Positions 19,211 through 50,024 of a stretch of 64,000 nt of DNA are shown piece after piece. Made by a program: the position numbers and the translations under genes. Positions within the stretch are counted from its first letter, which is position 1, and every line of letters starts with the position of its first letter. The DNA is from Arctopsyche grandis (lineage: Eukaryota > Arthropoda > Insecta > Trichoptera > Hydropsychidae). The stretch covers positions 12,994,501 through 13,058,500 of the forward strand of contig NC_135367.1 in NCBI RefSeq assembly GCF_051622035.1, read 5' to 3'. The notes under the pieces are model-generated. The model did no database searches and was not told the DNA's origin. It was given only the letters and a program-made list of their open reading frames with translations.

Positions 19211-19274
19211 GGAGATGTTCCGTGATCGAGATTTTAGTGACGTGTGCCAGAACGCTTTTTGTGGAATAATCCGC
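19211..19274 (+). mobile_element. Right half of the GGAATAATC MITE family
   Basis: GATGTTCCGTGATCGAGATT, TTAGTGACGTGTG and CTTTTTGTGGAATAATC match the right half of the full-length elements at 40,825 and 47,549. The left half is missing. Confidence 0.65.
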
Positions 19275-19332: not shown

Positions 19333-20210
19333 TTACTGTAGCGTATTTGTATGGCGAACGAACGGACAGTCTTCTCGCATAGCTTGTTCAGACAAATTGA
19401 TCAAATCATTCTGCGTTCGGTGTGATGTGTAACGTGCATTTCCAGCAGTTGTATCAAAATGGTTTTTTAAAATACTGTCTCTTTCCTCAATTCGATACGC
19501 ATAAAGTTGTTTCTTTCTGTTTTCCATGCATACATTTCCTTTGGTGCTATCTTTCCCACGAACTGCCAAATCATTTGTTCCGCAAAATAAGATTGTTGAA
19601 ATAATAGGATACAGTTTATTTCTGTTTTCTTCAATAGTTCGTTTTACAGAATTATCTATGTGACAAATAATATCCTTATTTGGATTTCTAATGGTTGACG
19701 CGAAGTGTTCAGCATCTTGTTGAGACCCACGATGCCGTGCTGAGCTGGTATGGTTTCTGGCACATTCATTAAAATCTTTGTACTTTGTACAAGGAGTAGT
19801 AATGAAGGCACCTTGAATTCCTCTTTGAACTGGTTGCGGAAATAAAACACAGAAAATGCAAAAAGCACCTTTTAACCTAGGTGAATATGATAACCATGGA
19901 GTATACTGGGTTAGCCAAGATTCCCGGAAACAACGTTTTCCACTTCCTGACATGTCGCCTTCAAAATCATATGACGGGTGAGGCTTGTATGGATCAGTTA
20001 GCAAACGATACTTAAGCTTAAGATCGATAGGAATCTTCGTAGTAGATTTTACATAGAGTCCAATATCATAGGTTAACCTAGTATCTCCACTTTCAAGCTT
20101 GTCAGGGTCTGATTCTGGTGATAGCGTTGCTGCTGCAGATGAACAAGCAACAGCATCCGTTTTTCGTTTTTTACAGACAGGAGTTAACGTGTCTCCACAC
20201 TTTCTTTATG
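19333..20210 (-). pseudogene. hAT-type transposase fragment (TTF-type finger end)
   Basis: The minus strand encodes about 220-290 residues that recall the N-terminal part of the ZMYM1/THAP12-like hAT transposases: a Ser/Asp-rich leader, a KYRLLTDPYKPHPSYDF stretch, a TTF-type zinc-finger region (RCFRESWLTQYTPWLSYSP followed by GAFCIFCVLF), then the EHFASTIRNPNKDI region. The frame ends near 19,333, well short of the usual 600-plus residues, so the catalytic and dimerisation parts are gone. No terminal repeats were identified. It is a deleted DNA-transposon copy. Confidence 0.7.
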
Positions 20211-20979: not shown

Positions 20980-21349
20980 AGTTCGGTGATTACTAGTCAA
21001 ATGTGAACCGGTCACAGGACAACCGGTCGCTCTAGATCGGTCACACGTGATCACCCGTCACACTCTAAAATCGGTCAACCAGTTTTCTCGTGACTGGTTT
21101 ACATTTGACTACTAGCAGTAGCGGCTCGTGAGATTTCATAGTGGGGGGGCTGCAGAGATTATTCAGGCTGTAGCAGCTCGTTAACCAAACCATTGATCGA
21201 ATGAAAACAAAAAAGCTTGAATATGTACTATACTGGTAGGTCTACAGCCCCACAGCCGATGTGGACGGCAAAAATAGCATGCATTTGTACTGTATTGGGA
21301 GGCTGCAGCCCCGCAGCCCATATGCACGAGCCGCCACTGACTAGTAGTT
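20980..21349. mobile_element. Foldback MITE, interrupted copy
   Basis: GTTCGGTGATTACTAGTCAA, ACCGGTCACAGGACAACCGG and GATCGGTCACACGTGATCAC match the complete copy at 43,670-43,881. The right terminus is split by the MITE at 21,116. Confidence 0.75.
21116..21339. mobile_element. hAT-type MITE, CAGTGGCGGCTCGTG ends
   Basis: The terminal inverted repeats are CAGTAGCGGCTCGTG and its partner CACGAGCCGCCACTG. Flanks ACTACTAG and ACTAGTAG form an 8-base target duplication with one mismatch. A second copy lies at 23,254-23,452 with a perfect 8-base duplication. The interior is non-coding. Confidence 0.8.
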
Positions 21350-23452: not shown

Positions 23453-25085
23453 GTAAACCCCAAAAACAGTGTCGCCTGGAATTTACTTACAAAACTATCA
23501 TTTGGATCCACAAAGTTGTCTTGGTGTATCACAAACGATTGCATTTGTACTCTTTCGTGGATGCAAGCGAAACGGAAGCTGAAACATCAATTCGGCACAA
23601 ATTGCGGATCGTAGTTGCAAGAATTTGTTTTTAGAAACTCATTTCGCACCTCCACCAATTAGTCTGGAGTATTTTTGACGGTAATCGCAGAGAATTACAC
23701 AATATAGGTACCATGTTGAAACTTACATCAAATGCCAGGCGACGCTATTATTGGTGTATACCTACATATGTATGTATATAAGAACTTCAAAAGTTCTGGT
23801 CAGAACCGATGTGCTTATGAACTTGACCCTTTTAAAAGTCTTCCGAGTGCTAAGCATGCTGTCTGAACGTCTTAATATTTTCACTCATGCAATTCTGCTA
23901 GGCAAATATTTTTATAAATGGCTCTTACTTACAAATATTTCTTATTTATACATATTTTAATATAATTTTTGTTATTATAAGCCAGGAAGGCGCTTCAGTT
24001 AGGTTAGGTCAGGCCTTCCTAGTTTGATTTTTAATAAAATACGATTAATAGACTATATAAACCAGAGTTGGTATATATAGCCTGTTTTATTTGTTAAAAT
24101 TCGTTACCATGTTTATTACCGGATTCGTTATCATGTTGATAATCAAAAATCACAATTTAACCATAAATGATGTTTTCATTTATATATTCTTTGCATTCAA
24201 AGGGTATATGCTATTGTGTAATACCTACTTCTTTGTCTCTACTGATGATACTTTCAAACATGCGAAGAAAACGCAGTGCCCCTCGCCCATATTCATAGTA
24301 CATAGTCCCTAAAATCACCCCCTGGAGTGTTTTCGGTGTTTTTTTATCCTTACTCATCCTTGCTTGACAGTGATCGATAACGGTGAATCCCATATTTGAA
24401 GAAATGAAGGAGAAACTTGTCGGTTGCATATGGATATGCATATGCATGCTGCTTCCCAAACATATTCATTCTGCACATGCACACCGGGAAGTCAAGGACA
24501 CATGACATCCCATACCATTCAGTGTGCTTTCCCCCTTACTGTATTTAATGGTTTCTAGTGCCTAATCTGTTAACACACATCGGCAATTATGTTTGCAATG
24601 ATAATTTTATTCTATTCGGCATTTCGCCTGTCTAAAGTACAACCCAGATATATGATCATGTTAACTCCAAAGGCACTCTTTCGACTTCGAAGAAATCGAA
24701 ACTTTTTATAAGCTATAGAAAATGTTGCAGGTTGAACATTGATTTGATTTTATTGAATTATATAAATCAATGCTACAGTTTGATAGTCACTTCCATAATC
24801 TAGTTGAGAATTTATTTAGTGTAGATTTTATGTACTTATCTATATATCCAGCTAGCCTAAGTTATTTAAGCATTTATAATGTGTAGAACATTGATATCTG
24901 ATAAGTATAATCAATCACACATGTAATGCAGCATATGTATATACAATTCGCTCTAGTGTCTTTTACGTACTGTAATAATTGTGTTTTCTGTTTAGTTGTA
25001 CTGATGGTTTTGCATTTTCTTTTTCAGGTCTAAGAGAGTGCGGCTCTATTTAGTTTAAACACAATTCACATTTACATCTAGCAAA

Positions 25086-25884
25086 ATGACTGACATGGAA
25101 GATACTCATTTCGAGACCGGAGATTCCGGTGCCTCGGCAACCTTTCCCATGCAGTGCAGTGCACTGCGCAAGAACGGTTTTGTGATGCTCAAGGGACGTC
25201 CTTGCAAGATTGTTGAAATGTCGACATCTAAAACTGGAAAACACGGACACGCCAAAGTTCACATGGTCGGGATCGATATATTCAATGGAAAGAAGTAAGT
25301 ACAATTAATGATTTTTATTTATATTATATTATATGCTGTACATGCGAACCTTGAGTCACTAATCTGAACTGTTATGATTGTTGGATCGGTGCTAAAGGTC
25401 ATTCGTAGATTATTCGTTGTCATTTCAAACCCTGGGTGATGTTTTTAATATGTCTCCAAATGGAATTAAGGATTGACATACATTTTATTTTTGATTTTGT
25501 CAGTATGTATTTTTATTTTGTTTTGTCTTTGTCAAGATACGAAGATATATGCCCTTCTACACACAATATGGACGTGCCACATGTTAAACGCGAAGACTAC
25601 CAGTTGACAGACATAGACGATGGTTATTTGACTCTCATGGCCGACAATGGTGACTTACGTGAAGATCTGAAGTTGCCCGATGGGGAACTCGGCACACAGC
25701 TGCGTTCTGACTTCGACGTCGGCAAGGAATTACTCGTAAGCCTCGTGACATTGCAGTGTATGATAATTGCAGAGTTGAATTTGTATTGATTTTTATTTTT
25801 TCGTATTTGCAGTGCACCGTTCTGAAGTCTTGCGGTGAGGAGTGTGTGATCGCCATCAAAGCGAACACCGCTCTTGATAAATAA
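25086..25884 (+). CDS. eIF5A: Eukaryotic translation initiation factor 5A
   Basis: Three coding exons: 25,086-25,294, 25,537-25,735 and 25,813-25,884, giving 480 bases and a 159-residue protein, the usual length. Junctions are GAA|GTAAGT, GTCAAG|A, CTC|GTAAGC and TTTGCAG|TGC, all in phase. eIF5A binds the ribosome and relieves stalling during elongation and termination, notably at proline runs. The hypusine loop is intact: in [12 protein letters not shown] the modified lysine is residue 52 (Lys50 in human numbering). The first half (to about residue 85) is the SH3-like domain and the rest the OB-fold domain, starting near [14 protein letters not shown]. The start is the first ATG after the acceptor at 25,027. 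The gene converges on the capping-protein gene to its right. Family and structure are certain. Confidence 0.97.
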
Positions 25885-36860: not shown

Positions 36861-38224
36861 TTTTCATTTTTTACGGTGCCATGTATGTGAAAAAAAGTAT
36901 TTATGAATTCAATCTGGAGTTTATATAATTTTAAAAGCGTAAAAAATGAGTAGGATGATCAAATAGGTTGTTAGCACTTTTATGCTAAATTAAAAAATAT
37001 ATTAAATTATCAAATTTTACTCAAGAGTGTAAAAACATAAATATTCTCAGGTGTATACCCGTTTTAATGTACTGAGTGATTTATTGACTCTAGAAGAAAA
37101 TTAATTGGCAAATAATAACTGACTGTCGCTAAATATGTATGTTTGTGACGGACGATCAACCAGTATGGGGAACCAATCACAGCCGAGTAATCGAGACGCC
37201 AGGGAGCGTGGTAGTGGGGGAGGGAAGGGGGGGGTGACGAGCGTCCTCGCATTTGTTCTTCGGCTGCGGCGGACGTGCCGGAGCGCGGCTCTGGGCGTCG
37301 GGGGCCCTGGGGATGAAGCCCCAGAGTGCTAGAGGCGTCAGGGGCGCGAAGCCCTCAGGGCACACACACACACATACATTCATTCATCATATCGAACGGG
37401 TTGGATTGCTAAGTTTATAATGTGTCACTTTTATTACTATTAATATTACGTGCGCATATAACTTTATTTTTATTCGTGTTTCAATTCCTTTTCGAAACCA
37501 CTCGTTGAAATCAACGGGCACAACACTAGTTTATAATAGTTCCAATTCTGATTTTAAAATGGACACATATGTAATATACATACGGTAAACGGTTTGTACA
37601 CGTTTGTAATGGCGGGTTTTTGTCGCAAATCGGTTAATGTCAAATGTGGACAAATTAGTGTTGTGAATAAAAGTACAAATGTAGTTTCACAAAAGGTTAT
37701 TATCCATTTTAATTTTTTAACTTACAGATGTGTGGTGTAATTAAGATAGATTTTTGCGTTCTATTGTGTAAATTTGTTACAGTAATATGGCAACTTAATA
37801 TTTGTACAAATACTTTTATTTCACAATGAGGTTTCCAATGAAAAATCTTTATGTATTTTCAAAATAAGAAACAAATATTTATAAAGCAAGCGTTCATTTT
37901 AAAGTAAGGTATTGTGAGTTGGTGATATGCAAGGATTGATTGATGATAAAATTATTGTTTAAAAAATGAAATTCACGATCATTGAGGCCATAATTTGAAA
38001 AATTAGATGTAGTTTGTGATCTCTAAATATCAATCCAGGCCTAATATATTAAAAAAGAATCATTGTACTCTGTGAGAATTGTAGTTAAAAGAAATGTTTA
38101 TACATATTTGTTTTATCAGTGTTTATATATTTTAGTATAAAAATGCAATTAATTTAATACGATAATAGTTTACTTACATAAATTTAAAATAAAAAAGTAA
38201 GATTTCAGAAAAATATATCAATAT
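36861..38224. other. Gene-free DNA with a GC-rich block and a Helitron-like end
   Basis: 37,160-37,370 is strikingly GC-rich (GGGGGCCCTGGGGATGAAGC and related palindrome-like words), with a short (CA)n run at its end. About 150 bases on, AACGGGCACAACACTAG ends at 37,529 before a T, the type of end seen in Helitron-like elements; no matching start was identified, so the element cannot be bounded. Confidence 0.35.
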
Positions 38225-38300: not shown

Positions 38301-40178
38301 TCATTCATGATTTAACTTCATAAAATAATACTTAAGGAATACCAATGCATCTAATGTATCATGTTTCATTGAATTTTGAATGTTTTTACAAAACTGATCA
38401 GCAACCGAAAATACACGCTCACTTGCCGTTGCCGTTGGTTGAATTGTTAACACGCAATTAAACAAATTGTCTAAATTTGGAGTGCGATTTCCAGTCAGTT
38501 CGAGTAGCTTAAAATCTTTGTCTAAATCCCATGTGTCACTACTTTGCACTTCCGGAACATTCATAACGGAGGATATACTCTTTTGCAGTTCTGAAATCAA
38601 ACTATCTGTTTTTGATACATCCATTTCCTTTGATGTCTGTGAGCTTTCAGCTACTTCTGTGATCTGTAAATCGTTTGAATTTTCGAAATCTCCAGGATAA
38701 AGTCTTTGTATAATAGTTTTTGCATATGATATAATAGAAGATTTCGACGCATATGTTTGAGTTGGGTTTAAAACCGTCTTTGGAACAGATGCGTTTTGAA
38801 GATATTTGATCAATGAAACTAAAGTTTTATTTCTTCGCTCCGATATTCTTTTAGTTAAAGCTTCATATATTTCGAAACTGAGAGAACTATCCTTCTTTTT
38901 TAGTTTGTCAAATAAAAAGTTAAATATTCCTTCCGCTGTTAAAATATTTGCATCAATTTTAGATAACTCCTTCACAGCAAGCTCGGTTGGTTTCAATATA
39001 TATAATATATTTTCTAAAATTGTGAAATCAATTTCATTGTACATGTTTTCACTACCGGTTTCAATGAGAGCTTTTCTTATACATTCTTTAATTTTTAAAA
39101 ACACTTCAATCATTGGTATTAAAGAATTCCACCGATTCTTACAATCTAATACAAGACGCATCTCATTTTTTTCTTGCTCCAACACGTATTTCTGTAAAAT
39201 GTAATTTCTTCTGTTGGAGTTTTTGAAGTAACATACGATTTGACGAACATTTTTGAGTACTTTATATAACTCTAAACGTGGATAATAATTTGAATTTACG
39301 TCTACATCAGAAATAAAACAGTCAAGATCTTCATCCGATTCATCATTATCACTGCTATCATTATCAAACAATTCCCGCTCATTTGAGGTAATTTTTTTGT
39401 AAAATACATCCATTATAGCCAAATGGATGGCGTTATTATAGCAAAGTTGACTTTCAATTCCAATTAAATGGCCGTATTTCTTCATAACTTCAGCACCATC
39501 ATGTGTGCACGAAATTATGTCTGTATTTAAATTAAGCCCGAATTCATTTAATTTATTTGTTATTAATTTTTTTAATGTGAAAGCATCACATGTATCTTTA
39601 ATAAATGTCAAACCCAACTTATGTTCAGTTTTTAAATTTTTTTTAGTATCATGTAAAGTTACATTTAAATATCGTCTATGGTTTAAATCTGTCCATTCAT
39701 CTACACTGATTGAAAAGCGACTTCCTGATTCTTTAAACTTCAAAAGTTCATCTCTAAGTTCTAGTTTCCTTTGGTTGTAAAATTCTAAAATCATCGTTTT
39801 AACAGTCAGTGGATTCTGTGGCATTTGATATCCTCTTTTATTGAAAAATTCTTTCAAAGCAGTTGAATTAACTATATCTTTAATCGAAAAACCATCATGA
39901 GCAACACATTTAGCTAAAAGTTCTGGTAGAGTTTCCGTTTTAACACAGTTTCGAATATTACTTGTAAGTTTCAAACATTTCACTGGGATTTGGTCTGTGT
40001 TTTCACTTTTTTTAGAATCTATTCCATGTTTCAATTTCAAATGATTAGCAAGTCCTGATGTGGAACCTCCCTTACATTTTATTTTTGACTTGCAAATTAC
40101 ACAATTAGCTACTTCACCAATTTCCTTTACGAAGAAGCTCCATACTCCAGATTTCTTTGAATTAATAAGTGGTGAAAA
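38301..40178 (-). CDS. hAT transposase-derived exon with BED finger, probably fused to ZAD
   Basis: An uninterrupted 625-residue frame counted from a strong acceptor (TGCATTTTTTCAG|TTT) at 40,179. Residues 11-51 form a BED zinc finger (GVWSFF, Cys26-x2-Cys29, His46-x4-His51). The RNase H-like core shows SVDEWTDLNHRRYLNVTLHD, SCTHDGAEVM and DCKNRWNSL. The C-terminus carries the hAT dimerisation block (TIQPTATASERVFSVADQFC then DALVFLKYYF). Length and order match full-length hAT transposases of the kind with a PNLDNLFN-type linker. The only in-frame ATG before the finger lies eight codons upstream, inside what looks like the acceptor's pyrimidine tract, so the start is probably supplied by splicing from the ZAD exons at 43,511-42,968, phase 0 to phase 0; that model gives 780 residues. 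No terminal repeats were found around it. Alternative: a plain, nearly intact hAT transposon. Confidence 0.85.
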   Translation of the reverse strand, partial: FSPLINSKKSGVWSFFVKEIGEVANCVICKSKIKCKGGSTSGLANHLKLKHGIDSKKSENTDQIPVKCLKLTSNIRNCVKTETLPELLAKCVAHDGFSIKDIVNSTALKEFFNKRGYQMPQNPLTVKTMILEFYNQRKLELRDELLKFKESGSRFSISVDEWTDLNHRRYLNVTLHDTKKNLKTEHKLGLTFIKDTCDAFTLKKLITNKLNEFGLNLNTDIISCTHDGAEVMKKYGHLIGIESQLCYNNAIHLAIMDVFYKKITSNERELFDNDSSDNDESDEDLDCFISDVDVNSNYYPRLELYKVLKNVRQIVCYFKNSNRRNYILQKYVLEQEKNEMRLVLDCKNRWNSLIPMIEVFLKIKECIRKALIETGSENMYNEIDFTILENILYILKPTELAVKELSKIDANILTAEGIFNFLFDKLKKKDSSLSFEIYEALTKRISERRNKTLVSLIKYLQNASVPKTVLNPTQTYASKSSIISYAKTIIQRLYPGDFENSNDLQITEVAESSQTSKEMDVSKTDSLISELQKSISSVMNVPEVQSSDTWDLDKDFKLLELTGNRTPNLDNLFNCVLTIQPTATASERVFSVADQFCKNIQNSMKHDTLDALVFLKYYFMKLNHE

Positions 40179-42113: not shown

Positions 42114-42387
42114 TTCTAAATAATATGAAATTATCGTGTCAGTTACTGCCGTTTCAGATACGCCATGTAAACATTACGGAAGATACGAAGGTGTTCATAT
42201 AGAAGGTACTGAGGAATATTTTTCTTACTGTTGTTTACGTGCCAGTTTGAGATGTATTGGTATAAAATAACCTGTTCTGTTCGTCGTGGAATTAAATTAC
42301 ATCGAAATCCATCGAAGCTCTTTATACTCGATTTGGAATCTCTTTATCTCAAATGATGTATCCAAATCGAACTTACCGAATAATAAT

Positions 42388-42745
42388 AAAAATAATTATT
42401 ATTAGTTGGACAGCTAACAAGTAGTAATTACACTATTGAGACATACAAAATATGAAATTTATTTTGAAATGTTTCCTGCGAGCGTTTGTTTGTATCAAGT
42501 TTGACCTCTATTTAAGTAATGTATCAAAATCGAACATACCGAATAATAAAGATGATAACCAGCATTAAGCTGAGTTGGACAACTCTAGAGACAGATAAAA
42601 AGTTATGGGTGAATAATACATACATACATTCTTTGAATGTATCTTTTGATAGTTTGCTTGAATTTGAACCAAGGTTTTTGATAAAACATTTATATTTAAT
42701 GCGTCCAAATTTTCGAAGACTACGTATCATATAATATTCAAACAA
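42388..42745 (-). pseudogene. Remnants of a third ZAD-gene copy
   Basis: 42,388-42,490 matches the donor-side end of ZAD exon 2 plus the following intron of the copy at 46.8 kb (TAATTACACTATTGAGACAT, TTTATTTTGAAATGTT, GCGAGCGTTTGTTTGTAT). The splice donor is lost here (GA in place of GT). A second short repeat of the same neighbourhood (TGTATCAAAATCGAACATAC) follows at 42,519. It points to a longer ancestral ZAD array. Confidence 0.6.
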
Positions 42746-42967: not shown

Positions 42968-43511
42968 CTGCGAGTATTTGTTTGTATTATCTTCATCGTG
43001 CGATGATAAATCACTGCTGCTTTGGTGTTTCCTCTTCAGACTGTGATGTGGATTACTCATTTCATTTGCGTCAATTTGTTTCGAAAAGTCTTTATCTGCA
43101 GTACTCGCCCGCCTTTTATCAATGACAGGTTTGATGTCTACATTTTCCTCCCAAACATAATCTTCCAATGTGATTTCTTCCATCTTGATTCGAGATTTGG
43201 AAGATCTTCGCCTTAGTATTTCGTCATTTTTAATGCAAGCTTTCTTAAAATTAGCAAACGATTCCAGTTGGGATTCGCACGACAGGCATATTGAATCTGG
43301 AAGCCCGTCACCTTGTTCTACCTGCCATGGAGAAAGAACTGTTTGGTATAATAATTTGTGAAATGTATAAGATAGAGGAACAGAGAGCGGATACACCGAC
43401 TTTGAGATGACAGCAGTTCCAGATGTGTCGTTCTATTGCTTGAGTATTATCGTAGATGGGGACATACGTTTCAAATGGTGCGGAAGATAGGCAGAGTCGG
43501 CACTCCGTCAT
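42968..43511 (-). CDS. ZAD zinc-finger 5' module, copy 1
   Basis: Two exons: 43,511-43,401 and 43,321-42,968, joined across a 79-base intron. They encode a full ZAD domain (MTECRLCLSSAPFETYVPIY...CCHLK|VEQGDGLPDSICLSCESQ then LESFANFKKACIKND), with both Cys-x2-Cys zinc pairs, followed by a charged linker ending NTNKYSQ. ZAD domains dimerise insect zinc-finger proteins. Exon 2 ends CAG|GTAACA in phase 0, so the protein must continue in a further exon; no C2H2 fingers exist in the window, and the next strong phase-0 acceptor leading into a long frame is that of the hAT exon at 40,178. The four-base repeat at the junction (GTCG/GTAG) makes the exact splice point ambiguous but not the protein. 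Compared with copy 2 there are about 23 changes in 155 residues and no length change. Confidence 0.85.
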
Positions 43512-43669
43512 GCTGACTTCAACTTCAATGTCTCGAGTACCGTTTTCCAATCATACTAAACTGTCACAACACAACACACAGGGTTGCCATCTAATTTATA
43601 ATGATACAAGTGATTTTGCACGATGCCTTAGTGTTGTGTCAACACTATGACAAAAACTTTGTACGAAAC

Positions 43670-43881
43670 GGTTCGGTGATTACTAGTCAAATGTGAACCG
43701 GTCACAGGACAAACGGTCGCTTTAGATCGGTCACACGTGATCACCCGTCACACTAAAACTAGTCACACCCTAAAATCGGTCAACCAGTTTTCTTGTGACC
43801 AGTTTTAGTGTGACGTGTGACCGATCTAGAGTGACCGGTTGTCCTGTGACCGGTTCACATATGACTAGTAGTCCGTTTACC
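43670..43881. mobile_element. Foldback MITE, full copy, upstream of ZAD copy 1
   Basis: The left arm GGTTCGGTGATTACTAGTCA...GATCGGTCACACG pairs with the right arm CGTGTGACCGATCTAG...GACTAGTAGTCCGTTTACC. TACGAAAC is duplicated on both sides (43,662-43,669; 43,882-43,889). It lies 159 bases upstream of the ZAD start codon. Non-coding. Confidence 0.85.
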
Positions 43882-43889
43882 TACGAAAC

Positions 43890-45338
43890 ATGTAAATAGG
43901 ATTTAAATATAGAAGGAAAGTTGATTCGAATTTATGTATAAATAAAAACATTTTCCCAATATTTGATATTATGTTTAGCCGAAATTAGTCTTGCATGGAT
44001 TATACAATAATAGTGATGTCATGCCGCGCCGTCGTCTTTATAAGGTCTGTATATATTATCCAGCATTGCACGTCAACCGCTCGGTACAGTATTGCACGGA
44101 AAAGACTAATTCTAATCATACTACGCAACAACGACAGATCCAGGGGGGAGGGAGAGAGGGGGCGATGGAAGGAAAGTGCCAGATATTTAAAAATATGTAT
44201 ATATTTTTGTTGGGTGGAAAGTAATTGAAAAGCAAAAAATTGTTGATGATTTTCTTTTATTCTATCCGGCCTTATCTAATCCTTTGGTGATCTAAGACCC
44301 CGCTCCGATAGAAAGAAATCTTTCTGCGTTAGAATCAGCATAATGCAAAATTATTAAGCTAATATCGTTTTTAAAAGCTTTTTTGAATAATCCGAAAAGG
44401 TTTATTTCTTATATTTTATGTAGAATAGCAATAGCTATTAACGATCATCCAACTCGAATCTGCTTCATGAGTTCACTATTAAAAATTAAAATGTAATTGT
44501 AGCAAGTTGCTGCTTAATATTTCACTATATTGAGATTTGCAGGATGTTCAAAACTTATGCCAATCAAAACGTAATACAGCGAGTTGTCGGTCAACGATCC
44601 ATCATATCAAAAGTTATCTGCAATACTACATATCGATGGCTTAGTGCACATATATTGTATGTCCATTTTTGATTTTTTTTGTAACGAATTTTAAGTTGGT
44701 AAATGCTGGAATAATTTAGGTTTTTCCTTTCAATATAATTTATGTGGTATACGTAAATTACCGTTAAAATTACATACATAGATATATTGTAATATTATTA
44801 CATACATACTTATTTTCATTCGACAAAATTTCTCGATAGTTCTCAATTCTAAAAACCAAAAATTCAATCTCAGGATTTCGATCAATTGTTAAATTTTAAC
44901 ATTTAAATTAGAAAATTTTCTACATACTATCTTTAGTTTCCGGATTTTAGAAACCAGCTCTACGAACCAAAATTATTTTAGTAACCGGCTTTATCTAGCC
45001 AATGCGAACCTATAGCAGCACATCACTGCACATACACATTAGTAGGTACGAATCTGTCCATATAGACCGTACTAAAGAATATTTTTCGTATTGCCATTCA
45101 CGTGCAGTTGGCGGCTTGAGTTGTACTAGTTTAGACGTACCTTAACTGCTCATCCCGGAGTTAAATTAGGTTTGCATTTTTTTACAAAATTAAAAATTAA
45201 AATATAATATAGTAAACACGTGTATATTTCTCTGAAATAATATAAAATTTTAAAATAAATAAGTACATAAATATGTATGAAAAATAATCATTAAAAAACA
45301 AAAAATTTAAAAATTCGATAACACATTCTAATATTTTA
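43890..45338. other. Upstream part of the ZAD duplication, then gene-free DNA
   Basis: 43,890-44,035 matches 47,760-47,895 (AATAAAAACATTTTCCCAAT, GCCGAAATTAG, GTCATGC.GCGCC), showing that the duplication extends beyond the ZAD exons. From 44,040 to 45,338 no gene is seen; 44,041-44,100 and 45,040-45,150 carry worn relatives of the MITE at 47,937. Confidence 0.55.
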
Positions 45339-45340
45339 TT
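45335..45340 (-). promoter_or_regulatory. Poly(A) signal overlapping the stop of the piggyBac-derived frame
   Basis: AATAAA on the minus strand overlaps the TAA stop codon at 45,341-45,339, so the 3' untranslated region would be only a few tens of bases. Confidence 0.5.
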
Positions 45341-46733
45341 ATATATTTTGTAGGTAGGTAAATCTATCGCAGTCAGGACAAGAAACTAGTCCAATCCTAT
45401 GAAGTAAGCACACAGCTTTTCCACAGGAATAACACATTAATCTAGTTCTTTTTTTAGCAGGCAACGGACAAAATCGGCATGATCCCCTACTCGGCGTTGA
45501 CTTAGACACAACTTTGGTTTCTGTTGATGTTAATACTACGGGTGATTTTGGCAGAACCTCTTCACAATATGCTAAAACTACATCAATCGCATATTGTTGC
45601 TTGACGTGATATGTTTGTCTGATAACTTTCCTTTTCAAAATATTAGGTTTCACCAATTCCAGACACAATTCTTTAATGAAAAGCTTCTGACGGTCTGCAC
45701 TACCTATTTTCCAATTTGGGTACCTGTTTATCCATAATAAGTAAGCATTTAGCGCTGCCATATCCAACAATTCCATAAACACTCGAAAAGGCCATCTCTT
45801 GGTCGCCTTTGCACAACAATACCTATTTTTGTCTAAATTCACAACTGCATGTTTTTTTCGCTTCATTTTGTACGCTTTATGTAAACTTGTAGTACCAGCG
45901 CCAGTGTGAATTTCTAAATTATTTATATACGACGTTGAAGAGTCGACTGCTGTCCAAATCAATATCCCATATCTGCCGCGCTCAGATTTTTCGAAAACTC
46001 GAAATGGACAATTGCCTCTATATGTCACCAAGTGTTTTTTCACGAGTATGTTGGAAGATTGAGTGTAATTTAGTATACAGGCGTCTCGAAATTTATCAAA
46101 AATTACTTTTATTGGTTCTAATTTGTTTGAAGACGCTTGAAATCGTTCCTGCCGTGTTTGTTTGTTGTCAAAACGTATGTAACTGTATATTTTGTAAAAT
46201 CTATCCCGAGACAATGCTGCCGAAAAAAATGGCCAGGCAAAGGGAGTTTCTTTTGTCCACATTTCAGAAATATTTATTTTTTGTGGCGTGATAATATTTT
46301 TGCCAGATGCCAGCATTAATCCAACGAATGCATATAATTCGTCTTCTGTAATTGCATCGATATTATTTTCCAATAATTGAATATTATTTATGTGCCGATT
46401 TGTCTCATCACATATCTCTTTCACAATTTCTTCATTTATGAATAAGGAAAACATTGATTTAATGTTAGTGCTGCTAACAATTTCATTTTCAAGTTTAGAA
46501 GTCTTGGTATCCCATTGTATTGAGGGAGCAGGTTGTTGCGAACTTCCATCTAATCTACATTTTGTTCCAATTACTGGATTATCTTCACTTTCACATAAAT
46601 CAAAATGTAAGTCTAGTTCTTCAACGAAATCTTCTGTGTCCGACGTATCATCTTTAATTTCAAATTTTGAATCACTATCATCATACTCATCTTCATAATC
46701 GGCTATCAATTTATTTTCAGCTATTTCTTTTTT
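45339..46733 (-). CDS. piggyBac transposase-derived exon, catalytically degenerate, probably fused to ZAD
   Basis: A 464-residue frame from the acceptor TTTTTATTTTAG|AAAAAA at 46,734 to 45,339. It has an acidic N-terminal stretch (DYEDEYDDSDS), then the piggyBac core: ELYAFVGLMLASGKN, PFFSAALSRDRFYKIYSYIR, YRGNCPFRVFEKSERGRYGI and a C-terminal cysteine-rich domain with CRFC, CYSC, C-x3-H and CPDC. Active piggyBac enzymes have Asp in a TVDEQL-type motif just before the RG-CPFR block; here it reads ILVKKHL, and the stretch expected to carry the second Asp, after the HTG motif, is missing, which makes the frame shorter than the usual 550-600 residues. So it cannot be an active transposase but keeps the DNA-binding tail. 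No in-frame ATG lies near its start; the first is well inside. Spliced to 47,390-47,280 and 47,199-46,846 it gives a continuous 619-residue ZAD-piggyBac protein. No TTAA-bounded ends were found. Confidence 0.85.
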   Translation of the reverse strand, partial: KKEIAENKLIADYEDEYDDSDSKFEIKDDTSDTEDFVEELDLHFDLCESEDNPVIGTKCRLDGSSQQPAPSIQWDTKTSKLENEIVSSTNIKSMFSLFINEEIVKEICDETNRHINNIQLLENNIDAITEDELYAFVGLMLASGKNIITPQKINISEMWTKETPFAWPFFSAALSRDRFYKIYSYIRFDNKQTRQERFQASSNKLEPIKVIFDKFRDACILNYTQSSNILVKKHLVTYRGNCPFRVFEKSERGRYGILIWTAVDSSTSYINNLEIHTGAGTTSLHKAYKMKRKKHAVVNLDKNRYCCAKATKRWPFRVFMELLDMAALNAYLLWINRYPNWKIGSADRQKLFIKELCLELVKPNILKRKVIRQTYHVKQQYAIDVVLAYCEEVLPKSPVVLTSTETKVVSKSTPSRGSCRFCPLPAKKRTRLMCYSCGKAVCLLHRIGLVSCPDCDRFTYLQNI

Positions 46734-46845
46734 CTAAAATAAAAATAAATTATTATTAAAAATGATTATTATTGTTTGGATAGCAAACAAGTAGTAATTA
46801 CACTATTGAGACATACAAAATATAAAATTTATTTTGAAATGTTAC

Positions 46846-47390
46846 CTGCGAACATTTGTTTGTATTTTCTTCATGATGCGATGAAAAATTGCTGCCGCTT
46901 TGGCGTTTCCTCTTTAGACTGTGATGTGGATTATTCATTTCATTTAAGTCAATTTGTTTCGAAAAGTCTTTATCTGCTGTACTTGGCTGCCTTTCATTAA
47001 TGACTGGTTTGATGTCTACATTTTCTTCCCAAACATAATCTTCCACTGTGATTTCTTCCATCTTGATTTGAGATTTTGAAAATCTTCGCCTCAGTATTTC
47101 GTCATTTTGAATGCAGGCTTTCTTAAAATTAGCAAACGATTCCAGGTGGGATTCGCACGACAGGCATATTGAATCTGGAAACCCATCACCTTGTTCTACC
47201 TGCCATGGAAAAATAACTGTTAGGTATAATAATTTGTGAAATGTATAAGATAGAGAAACAGAATAGCGGATACACCGACTTTGAGATGACAGCAGTTCCA
47301 GATGTGTCGTTCTATTGATTGAGTATTGTTGTAGATGGGGACATACGTTTCAAATGGCAGGGAAGATAGGCAAAGTCGGCACTCCATCAT
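46846..47390 (-). CDS. ZAD zinc-finger 5' module, copy 2
   Basis: Two exons, 47,390-47,280 and 47,199-46,846 (80-base intron), with the same lengths (111 and 354 bases) as copy 1. The ZAD domain is complete (MMECRLCLSSLPFETYVPIY...CCHLK|VEQGDGFPDSICLSCESH), followed by the same linker ending NTNKCSQ. The donor CAG|GTAACA is phase 0 and only 112 bases of intron separate it from the phase-0 acceptor of the piggyBac-derived exon at 46,733. ATG is chosen at 47,390; a second ATG follows immediately. Upstream in-frame codons start after a stop, so the ATG is well bounded. Confidence 0.88.
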
Positions 47391-47548
47391 GCTGAGTCCA
47401 ATTTCAAAGTTTAGAATACCCTTTTCCAATCATACTAAACTGTCACAACACAAGACACAGGGTTGCCATCTAATTTACAATGATACAAATGTTTTTGCAC
47501 AATGCCGTCGTGTTGTGTTAATACTATGACAAAAACTGTGTTCGAAAC

Positions 47549-47751
47549 AGTAATCGGATTATTCCACAAAAAGCGATATCGTGCAAGTCACTAATATATC
47601 GATTACGGAACATCTGGTACTCGAGTTCTTGTTAGTACAATATTTCGCGTGTTAAGCTTTCGATTGATGGAGTTTTGGGTGCCAGATGTTTCGTGATCGA
47701 GATTTTAGTGTCTTGCGTGAGACCGCTTTTTGCGGAATAATCATCGAACTG
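47549..47751. mobile_element. MITE, GGATTATTCC family, upstream of ZAD copy 2
   Basis: AGTAATCGGATTATTCCACA at the left and (inverted) CAGTTCGATGATTATTCCGC at the right; flanks TTCGAAAC and TACGAAAC are an 8-base duplication with one mismatch. It sits at the same distance from the ZAD start codon as the foldback MITE in copy 1. Confidence 0.8.
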
Positions 47752-47936
47752 TACGAAACATGCAAATGGGATGTAAATAAAATAGAAAAGAAAATTCGAA
47801 TTTATGCATAAATAAAAACATTTTTTCAATATTTGATGTTATAGCCGAAATTAGCCTTGGTTTGATATAATTAAAAGTTACGTCATGCGGCGCCACCCAC
47901 TTTATGTCCTCCACAAATATTAGTTGTAATGACTTA

Positions 47937-48155
47937 AGGTCTGTTCATACCTATCCAGCACGACCATTATCCTGCAGGTGTCATGCAAGTGCGGATAGTA
48001 TTCTTTGGTACATTATACGGACGTATTCATACTCCATTCGCGCATGCGCATTTACGCATTCGTGCGCGTCCATATAGAATGAATCAAAGAATACTATCCG
48101 CACTTGCATGATACCTGCAGGATACGGGTCGTGCTGGATAGATATGAACAGACCT
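47937..48155. mobile_element. PIF/Harbinger-like palindromic MITE
   Basis: AGGTCTGTTCATACCTATCC at the left pairs with GATAGATATGAACAGACCT at the right; the arms go on through CAGCACGACC, CTGCAGGTGTCATGCAAGTG and CGGATAGTATTCTTTG. TTA is repeated on both sides (47,934-47,936; 48,156-48,158), the TWA target of that superfamily. Confidence 0.8.
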
Positions 48156-48479
48156 TTATTCCTAATTAAGTTAGCATTTTTACTACCAGGAGATACATCA
48201 CCTCAAGTTAACTCAAGAACGACAGTGTCTTCGTTATGCTGCAGTTACACGAGGCCAATTGTTAAGATATTTCACTGAGTCAAATCAATATTGATGAAAG
48301 CCAATATATAGCCTTGTGTAAATGCAACATTATTGGTAGAGCATGGATTGTTTCCAATCCTCCTTATCATCATTCTTCTGTAGGTACTGGATCGCTTTCA
48401 GTCCTCCATCTGCAGTCACCATTCAAGAGCACTCCTGGTTCTCACCACCATTTTTAGCACAGCGAAGAAGTACTAATGA

Positions 48480-48557
48480 GAACTCGAGTGCCAGATGATC
48501 CGTGATCGAGATTTCAGTGAAGTGTGCGAGATCGTTTTTTGCGGAATAATCACCAAA
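48480..48557 (+). mobile_element. Right half of the GGAATAATC MITE family
   Basis: GAACTCGAGTGCCAGATGAT, CGTGATCGAGATT and TTTTTTGCGGAATAATCACC match the right half of the 40,825 element. No left half is present. Confidence 0.65.
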
Positions 48558-50024
48558 CATCAAAATCAAACAAGAAGTCAACATTACAACGAAACACTCG
48601 AATTTATGATCTTGTAAACCTGCCACAAAATTAAACGTAAAAACCTGTAAAATTTATTTGGTATCGTTCTTTGTGTTGCATTGAATTTTATCCCTCTTCA
48701 TATCCAATACCATGGTTCTGCTACCCAACATTTCTTTTTGATTTTAATTTCCCTGTTTTTAAAATATACCGTTATGCCATTTGTCAATTTTTGTTACTGG
48801 CAGCACTCGCAATAACAGTGCAGTTCGTCACCTGCGCTTGTGTCAAAACTAGTTTATTTCACCTTTTACTATCAATTACGCTGAAAAGTAAGGATTATTT
48901 AAATTAAAAATAAAACGCTTCTCTGTATATTTTATACACATTTATTTAGAAACCATAATTTCCATTGTAGTTGTAACAATTAGTTCGGATCTCTCAACTG
49001 TCATATAAGGTACTAATTGTAGGTGAATGTGATTCACCGCATACATATATTTTCCATCATCTTCCAAGGCCTCATGATGCATAGCTTTGAATTCCGACGT
49101 AATTTTATAATCCGTTGTTGAGGTATTCAATTCACGCTCTTTCATTATCTCTTCTTCCAGTCGACAGATAAGGGGTATTATTTACTTAACGATGGCTTCG
49201 TACTAACCTAATATGTAACTAAATGCTATTTTATAACATTTCGATAGTCAATATTACAATTCCTTGCTTTTTTTTTGCAATATATGTGTATTTGTTGTTT
49301 CACGATTATTTATTTTGTGCAATGAATCTGGCAACTGTGTGAAGTTAATATGTAGCTATGTATTGTATTTGTACTACGAATGTTTAAATTTCAAACTCTT
49401 CGCTGTCAGTATTTTGAACTAATGACTAAAGTGAACTTTGAAAATTTTTATATACCTACTAAATTTGCATCTTAAAAAATGTCTATATTTTTTAAAATTT
49501 AAATTAGTTTTTTCTTTTATATGAATTATGACGCAGTTTATACTCGTTAGTACAAAGGTTTGAAAATATTTAAAAGTATAGTCAAGTAGAACTCTGTATA
49601 GTAACAGACTTATGCTTGAATTTTGTTTAATTTAGTATCCGTGGTAATAAATGGCGGTTAGATAAATATAGTCTATCTATCTGTATACTAACTTATTTGT
49701 ACCTTATAAGTTTCCGCACCTTTAAAAGTAATCAGTGGAAAGATTTGCAGTGTTTGAGTGAGATATATTGACTCTGGTTGACAATTGTACAAAGTTTTGC
49801 TCCGTTGCAAACAGATTCATAATGTTTTTGAATGATTCGTTTGAACAATCGTATTCCATTTGAATATTACTATCATAAATTTTCAGTATCACAATTTAAA
49901 ACCCCTTCATGTGAAAGCCAAATAAATTAATCCATCTCAATATGTACATAGATTAATTAAAATCATACTGGATATGTGGGTATTTTCATATATGTCATTG
50001 ATTTCCTTATTATTTTGACTTCAG
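48558..50024. other. Gene-free DNA upstream of the first coding aPKC exon
   Basis: AT-rich, no bounded repeat and no supported gene. Any untranslated first exon of aPKC must lie here or further left, but no promoter-like CG block is seen. Confidence 0.4.

What the first reader, a model, noticed from the sequence alone, without database searches (positions are those of the whole stretch)
45339..47390. ZAD-piggyBac fusion gene with an intact spliced frame
Seen: exons 47,390-47,280, 47,199-46,846 and 46,733-45,339 join through consensus splice sites in phase 0 to give one 619-residue frame: a complete ZAD domain, an acidic linker, then a piggyBac-derived protein. The piggyBac exon has no start codon of its own near its beginning and is preceded at once by a stop inside the acceptor, so it needs the ZAD exons. 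Known: transposase capture by KRAB exons has produced vertebrate transcription factors; ZAD is the insect counterpart of such dimerising modules. Inferred: a domesticated regulator combining ZAD dimerisation with a piggyBac DNA-binding tail. I do not know of a described ZAD-piggyBac gene.
Basis: partly seen in the sequence, partly recalled or inferred. Interest (0 to 1): 0.88.

Follow-up and report, generated by a model that had tools for sequence, protein, structure and literature searches.

The report
ZAD domain fused to dead piggyBac
An arthropod gene model joins a regulatory-protein module (ZAD) to the remains of a jumping-gene enzyme that has lost its cutting site but kept its zinc-binding tail, which looks like a former transposon turned into a possible gene regulator, although its expression has not been shown.

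Summary
Three minus-strand exons (47390-47280, 47199-46846, 46733-45339) join in phase 0 into a 619-residue frame: ZAD (Pfam zf-AD, 3e-10), an acidic stretch, then a piggyBac protein (DDE_Tnp_1_7, 9e-36). The piggyBac exon follows an in-frame TAG and has no ATG for 93 codons.

New here: against solved piggyBac, two catalytic aspartates are substituted and the third lies in a 126-residue stretch represented by 13 unaligned residues. The Cys/His pattern of the C-terminal zinc domain remains. No TTAA-flanked terminal repeats were found. A tandem ZAD copy (B, 43511-42968) keeps its frame (dN/dS 0.38) but lacks the piggyBac exon. B's donor is in phase with the acceptor of a 625-residue hAT frame.

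Most likely a host-transposase fusion gene encoding a dimerising DNA-binding protein that cannot transpose. It would work like PGBD1 or CSB-PGBD3, with ZAD in place of KRAB/SCAN. No transcript, orthologue or genome copy number could be tested, so a decaying fusion or a mobile ZAD-carrying unit is not excluded. New variant of a known kind.

The parts
47280..47390 (-). Exon 1 of copy A: start codon and first half of ZAD (Cys4, Cys7)
46846..47199 (-). Exon 2 of copy A: rest of ZAD (Cys49, Cys52) and linker; phase-0 donor
45339..46733 (-). Exon 3 of copy A: acidic stretch, piggyBac-derived part with catalytic residues lost, C-terminal zinc domain, stop codon
43401..43511 (-). Exon 1 of ZAD copy B
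42968..43321 (-). Exon 2 of ZAD copy B, same donor, not followed by a piggyBac exon
42381..42495 (-). Fragment C: end of exon 2 and start of intron 2, 90% like 46865-46751; donor reads GA
38301..40178 (-). hAT frame, 625 codons plus stop, behind an acceptor in phase with copy B's donor; possible but unproven partner of copy B

Best explanation
A three-exon host gene in which ZAD exons are spliced to a captured piggyBac transposase exon. Shown by sequence: one open 619-codon frame, an intact ZAD, an acidic stretch, loss of the aligned catalytic aspartates, and a kept Cys/His pattern in the zinc domain. Inferred: the ZAD dimerises the protein and helps bring it into the nucleus. The zinc domain, with what remains of the transposase's DNA-binding region, takes it to old piggyBac ends or sites like them, and the dimer there represses or insulates nearby DNA, or blocks a living transposase. 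It cannot cut DNA.
For: Both domains are above Pfam's cut-offs in one frame. Exon 3 has no ATG before residue 94 and follows a stop, so it needs an upstream exon to make the acidic stretch. In the alignment with Trichoplusia ni piggyBac (6x67), Asp268 falls on Lys, Asp447 on Val, and chain residues 319-444, which include Asp346, are represented by 13 residues outside the aligned blocks; that these three form the catalytic triad is recalled. The Cys/His pattern of the zinc domain is kept. No TTAA plus 13-base repeat pair with up to 4 mismatches was found among 22 x 11 TTAA sites. ZAD exons A against B: 25 nonsynonymous and 15 synonymous differences, dN 0.070, dS 0.185, omega 0.38, no indel or stop; had the 40 differences fallen at random on one lineage, 80% of runs would hold a stop. 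Nonsynonymous sites are less diverged than neighbouring noncoding sites (25 of 374 against 34 of 293, p = 0.028) and than synonymous sites (p = 0.006).
Against: No transcript, orthologue or population data. The constraint is on ZAD exons only, and copy B shows it without any piggyBac exon, so the ZAD frame may be kept for another reason. With the number of differences fixed, the shortage of amino-acid changes is weak: 23 against 27.9 expected, 4.75% of 4000 runs as low; ZAD alone 7.65%, linker alone 21.8%. Intron 1 is as little diverged (5 of 79) as nonsynonymous sites. Constraint on exon 3 could not be measured. The exon-1 donor is weak. Alignment confidence around Asp447 is low (about 0.5). 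The net loss of about 113 residues would break the RNase H-like core, so the protein may not fold; the single-sequence AlphaFold model was useless (mean pLDDT 33).
Confidence: 0.52

Rival explanations
1. A decaying fusion without function: a piggyBac copy landed beside or in a ZAD gene copy, gained a splice path by chance, and its frame has simply not yet been broken.
For: Under substitutions alone exon 3 stays free of stops with chance 0.52 at 1%, 0.17 at 3% and 0.06 at 5% divergence (400 runs each), so a recent relic can look intact. The neighbouring fragment C has lost its donor. The catalytic core is already broken. No measure of selection on exon 3.
Against: The catalytic lesions and the missing terminal repeats suggest an old piggyBac copy; at 10% divergence the frame would survive in 0.5% of runs. 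The large loss is in frame and the zinc-domain pattern is kept.
Confidence: 0.25
2. The ZAD exons form a mobile or dispersed unit with piggyBac: a transposon that has taken up ZAD exons and exists in many copies.
For: Three partial copies of the ZAD segment lie within 5 kb, and the genome could not be searched for more.
Against: No TTAA and terminal repeats around the unit, a transposase without catalytic residues, copies in tandem in the same orientation, and no further ZAD or piggyBac copy elsewhere in the window by tblastn (one other match, E = 0.2).
Confidence: 0.1
3. Two separate things: a short ZAD-only gene that reads through intron 2 to a stop, or ends otherwise, and an unconnected piggyBac relic behind it.
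For: Reading on past the exon-2 donor meets a stop after 16 codons in copy A and 3 in copy B. Copy B has ZAD exons and no piggyBac exon.
Against: A strong donor conserved in A and B and an acceptor in the same phase 112 nt on; the piggyBac frame has no ATG for 93 codons.
Confidence: 0.1

Closest known systems
PGBD1 (SCAN/KRAB-piggyBac gene of mammals)
   Same: Host N-terminal domains, a disordered stretch, then a piggyBac-derived part that no longer transposes (passages of PMC9499001)
   Different: ZAD instead of SCAN/KRAB; arthropod; here the middle of the catalytic core is missing
CSB-PGBD3 fusion of primates
   Same: Host 5' exons spliced to a piggyBac transposase frame; a catalytic aspartate mutated; the fusion binds piggyBac-derived MER85 elements (start of abstract, passages of PMC3459987)
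   Different: Host partner is the N-terminus of CSB, made by alternative splicing beside the full protein; no ZAD; 889 MER85 elements located, of which 363 bound, while no target is known here
KRAB-transposase fusions (transposase capture, Cosby et al. 2021)
   Same: A transcription-factor N-terminal module captures a transposase DNA-binding part (recalled)
   Different: Vertebrate and KRAB. The paper is not held; seen only as a citation in PMC8700633
ZAD-C2H2 zinc finger proteins
   Same: N-terminal ZAD with four cysteines; Drosophila ZAD-ZNF genes often sit beside relatives with shared exon structure (passages of PMC7655104)
   Different: The putative DNA-binding part is a piggyBac remnant; no C2H2 pattern found in the window

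Membership tests
ZAD domain (zf-AD) | Profile match over the whole domain above the curated cut-off | tested here: met
   40.5 bits against a cut-off of 28, positions 2-74 of 75
ZAD domain (zf-AD) | Four cysteines that hold one zinc | tested here: met
   Two CxxC pairs, Cys4/7 and Cys49/52, in the region aligned with chains 7pok (2.4e-4) and 7po9 (0.37, weak); zinc binding itself not tested
ZAD-ZNF proteins | C-terminal C2H2 fingers | tested here: not met
   No stop-free C-x2,4-C-x12-H-x3,5-H in six frames of the window
piggyBac superfamily | DDE_Tnp_1_7 match and relation to solved piggyBac | tested here: met
   124 bits in two stretches; 6x67 at 1e-28
piggyBac superfamily, active transposase | Catalytic aspartate triad | tested here: not met
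   D268 to K, D346 region absent, D447 to V in the phmmer alignment with 6x67; low alignment confidence at D447
piggyBac superfamily | C-terminal cysteine-rich zinc domain | tested here: met
   Seven Cys/His positions align with 6x67; the eighth, Cys610, lies past the alignment and is read from the sequence. The sequence match of this part alone is weak (0.021 to 5lme)
piggyBac mobile element | TTAA target duplication and terminal inverted repeats | tested here: not met
   No pair within 43000-48600; degenerate or distant repeats could be missed
Host-transposase fusion gene | Host exons spliced in frame to a transposase exon | tested here: inconclusive
   In-frame join with fair splice sites; no RNA evidence
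Host-transposase fusion gene | Fused frame under purifying selection | tested here: inconclusive
   ZAD exons: omega 0.38 between tandem copies; piggyBac exon: no relative to compare

The most novel reading that the evidence does not exclude
A tandem ZAD exon pair has captured transposases twice side by side: copy A a piggyBac frame and copy B a hAT frame. Both accept splicing in phase 0, which would make ZAD exons a repeatable donor of dimerising modules, as KRAB exons are in vertebrates.
Probability: 0.13. Interest if true: 0.78.

Novelty: new variant of a known kind. Interest (0 to 1): 0.52.

Why it matters
Transposase capture as a source of transcription factors is, as far as I recall, described mainly in vertebrates, with KRAB and SCAN as host modules. 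ZAD genes are the large insect class that has been compared with KRAB zinc finger genes (passages of PMC7655104). A selected ZAD-piggyBac gene would show the same route in arthropods. It would also give a clear prediction: binding to piggyBac-derived repeats of the same genome.

Tried and rejected
C2H2 finger exon as the true partner of the ZAD exons: no such pattern in six frames of the window. Other phase-0 partners: ten frames of 60 codons or more behind 117 acceptors. The nearest to copy A is exon 3. The others are copy B's exon 2, the hAT frame (two nested acceptors), short frames at 37328, 37306 and 36829, and an exon (three nested acceptors, 35573-35516) that looks like capping protein beta (that name is recalled).

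Origin of the piggyBac segment: whether it was inserted in copy A after duplication or lost from B and C is not settled. B and C share sequence where A has the piggyBac exon. DNA about 70% like A's 3' flank (45168-45033) follows C at 42299-42168. That is lower than the roughly 90% of the shared intron, so it may be a separate repeat. By eye no TTAA marks the junction clearly.

hAT terminal repeats with an 8-base duplication: 24 pairs passed a loose test; the ten printed are A+T-rich or simple sequence and none convinced me.

Structure: the single-sequence model failed, so no fold search was run and the second structure job was not used.

Papers that looked relevant and were not: PMC10798136 ('ZAD' hits shown were the author name Zadra) and PMC8576890 (ZAD only in its reference list).

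First dN/dS attempt was misaligned by one codon and is discarded; one search replaces it. The hAT rows used a wrong start and are discarded; one search replaces them.

Full report
What is there. On the minus strand, exons 47390-47280, 47199-46846 and 46733-45339 join in phase 0 and give 619 residues. Pfam places zf-AD at residues 4-75 and DDE_Tnp_1_7 at 248-446, both above their cut-offs. Residues 156-250 hold 26 Asp/Glu against 10 Lys/Arg. A long disordered N-terminus, mostly acidic in the insect enzyme, is described for piggyBac transposases, and the disordered stretch also for their domesticated relatives (PMC9499001, passages). So exon 3 seems to keep most of the transposase N-terminus but not its start codon: the first Met is residue 94, and the codon before the exon is TAG.

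Splice sites. Scores used generic consensus frequencies recalled from memory. The exon-2 donor and acceptor are strong, the exon-3 acceptor is fair (33rd of 475), and the exon-1 donor is weak. The first junction can be read at two positions with the same protein. Intron 1 is 80 nt in copy A and 79 nt in copy B.

State of the transposase. The alignment with solved Trichoplusia ni piggyBac (6x67, 1e-28) covers chain residues 134-318 and 445-590. Asp268 falls on Lys and Asp447 on Val, the latter with low alignment confidence; Asp450 is kept. The stretch between the two blocks, chain residues 319-444, which holds Asp346, is represented by 13 residues. That 268, 346 and 447 are the catalytic triad is recalled. 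The cysteine-rich domain aligns with 5lme and 6x67 with its Cys and His pattern kept, though the match of this part alone is weak (E 0.021 and 0.054); an eighth position, Cys610, lies past the alignment. In piggyBac this domain binds transposon ends, while the corresponding domain of PiggyMac does not bind DNA (PMC8086355, passages). DNA binding is therefore likely here, not certain. No terminal repeats with TTAA were found.

The neighbourhood. A 754-base stretch (47551-46798) is 90% identical to 43672-42920. This copy B has both ZAD exons, no stop or indel, and the same exon-2 donor. Over 155 codons dN is 0.070 and dS 0.185. Nonsynonymous change is below noncoding change (25/374 against 34/293, p = 0.028) and below synonymous change (p = 0.006). 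The noncoding total is 20/161 in the 5' flank, 9/53 in intron 2 and 5/79 in intron 1, so intron 1 by itself is no more diverged than nonsynonymous sites. A simulation with a fixed number of differences is less clear: 23 amino-acid differences against 27.9 expected, with 4.75% of 4000 runs as low. The ZAD part alone (7.65% of runs as low) and the linker alone (21.8%) do not reach 5%. A third fragment, C, holds the end of exon 2 and part of intron 2, and its donor is GA. Neither B nor C is followed by a piggyBac exon: tblastn of the fusion finds that part only once in the window, apart from one match at E = 0.2. Downstream of B lies a hAT frame with zf-BED and the hAT dimerisation region and matches to Hermes. 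It begins in phase 0 behind a fair acceptor (19th of 475), so a ZAD-hAT product is possible. The frame also has an ATG of its own eight codons upstream of that acceptor, so it may equally be a separate transposon gene.

How it most likely works. ZAD domains of several Drosophila proteins dimerise, and three tested ones are needed for nuclear localisation (PMC5081699, passages). The fused protein would therefore be a nuclear dimer carrying two copies of a piggyBac zinc domain, without the power to cut. CSB-PGBD3 gives the working precedent: a spliced host-piggyBac fusion with a mutated catalytic aspartate that binds dispersed piggyBac-derived elements (PMC3459987, start of abstract and passages). 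Target sites, the regulatory outcome and expression are inferred here.

What could not be tested. The window's genome is not held. Scans of viral contigs (25 pattern matches, none confirmed) and genome contigs (73 matches, none confirmed) found no relative, as expected for an animal gene in viral and prokaryote collections. Exon 3 therefore has no comparison for selection. Under substitutions alone it would stay free of stops with chance 0.52 at 1%, 0.17 at 3%, 0.06 at 5% and 0.005 at 10% divergence. A recent relic is thus not excluded. The species is unknown; 'arthropod' is inferred from the ZAD.

Literature. Ten searches of the held library showed no described ZAD-piggyBac or ZAD-transposase fusion gene among the listed titles and abstract starts; most lists were capped (for example 25 of 229 papers). 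'ZAD domain' with 'transposase' and 'fusion' gave 0 papers. 'ZAD' with 'transposase' and 'zinc finger-associated' gave 3, of which I opened one; there the related case is a THAP domain, which shares features with the P-element transposase DNA-binding domain, in two Drosophila ZAD-ZNF proteins (PMC9810180, passages). The other two were not opened. The paper on vertebrate transposase capture is not held.

Verdict. It is a new variant of host-transposase fusion rather than a new kind.

Noticed in passing
38301-40178 (-): Open 625-codon hAT frame with zf-BED and hAT dimerisation region and a phase-0 acceptor, no convincing terminal repeats. By eye a His of the usual CxxH-type motif is Asn (motif recalled).
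   Followed up: partly
47742-47557, 41025-40833, 48551-48470, 19213-19273: Related palindromic MITE-like repeats, with ends GATTATTCCGC by eye; one ends 167 bases upstream of the ZAD-piggyBac start codon.
   Followed up: no
43873-43678 and 20981-21100: A second palindromic repeat family, lying upstream of ZAD copy B where copy A has the first family.
   Followed up: no
35573-35172 (-) and 25059-25789 (+): Exons that read like F-actin capping protein beta and eIF5A (names recalled, not searched), which could anchor a synteny search.
   Followed up: no
19333-20205 (-): Open 290-codon frame that by eye resembles a TTF-type/hAT-like transposase relic; no Pfam match at E up to 1.
   Followed up: partly
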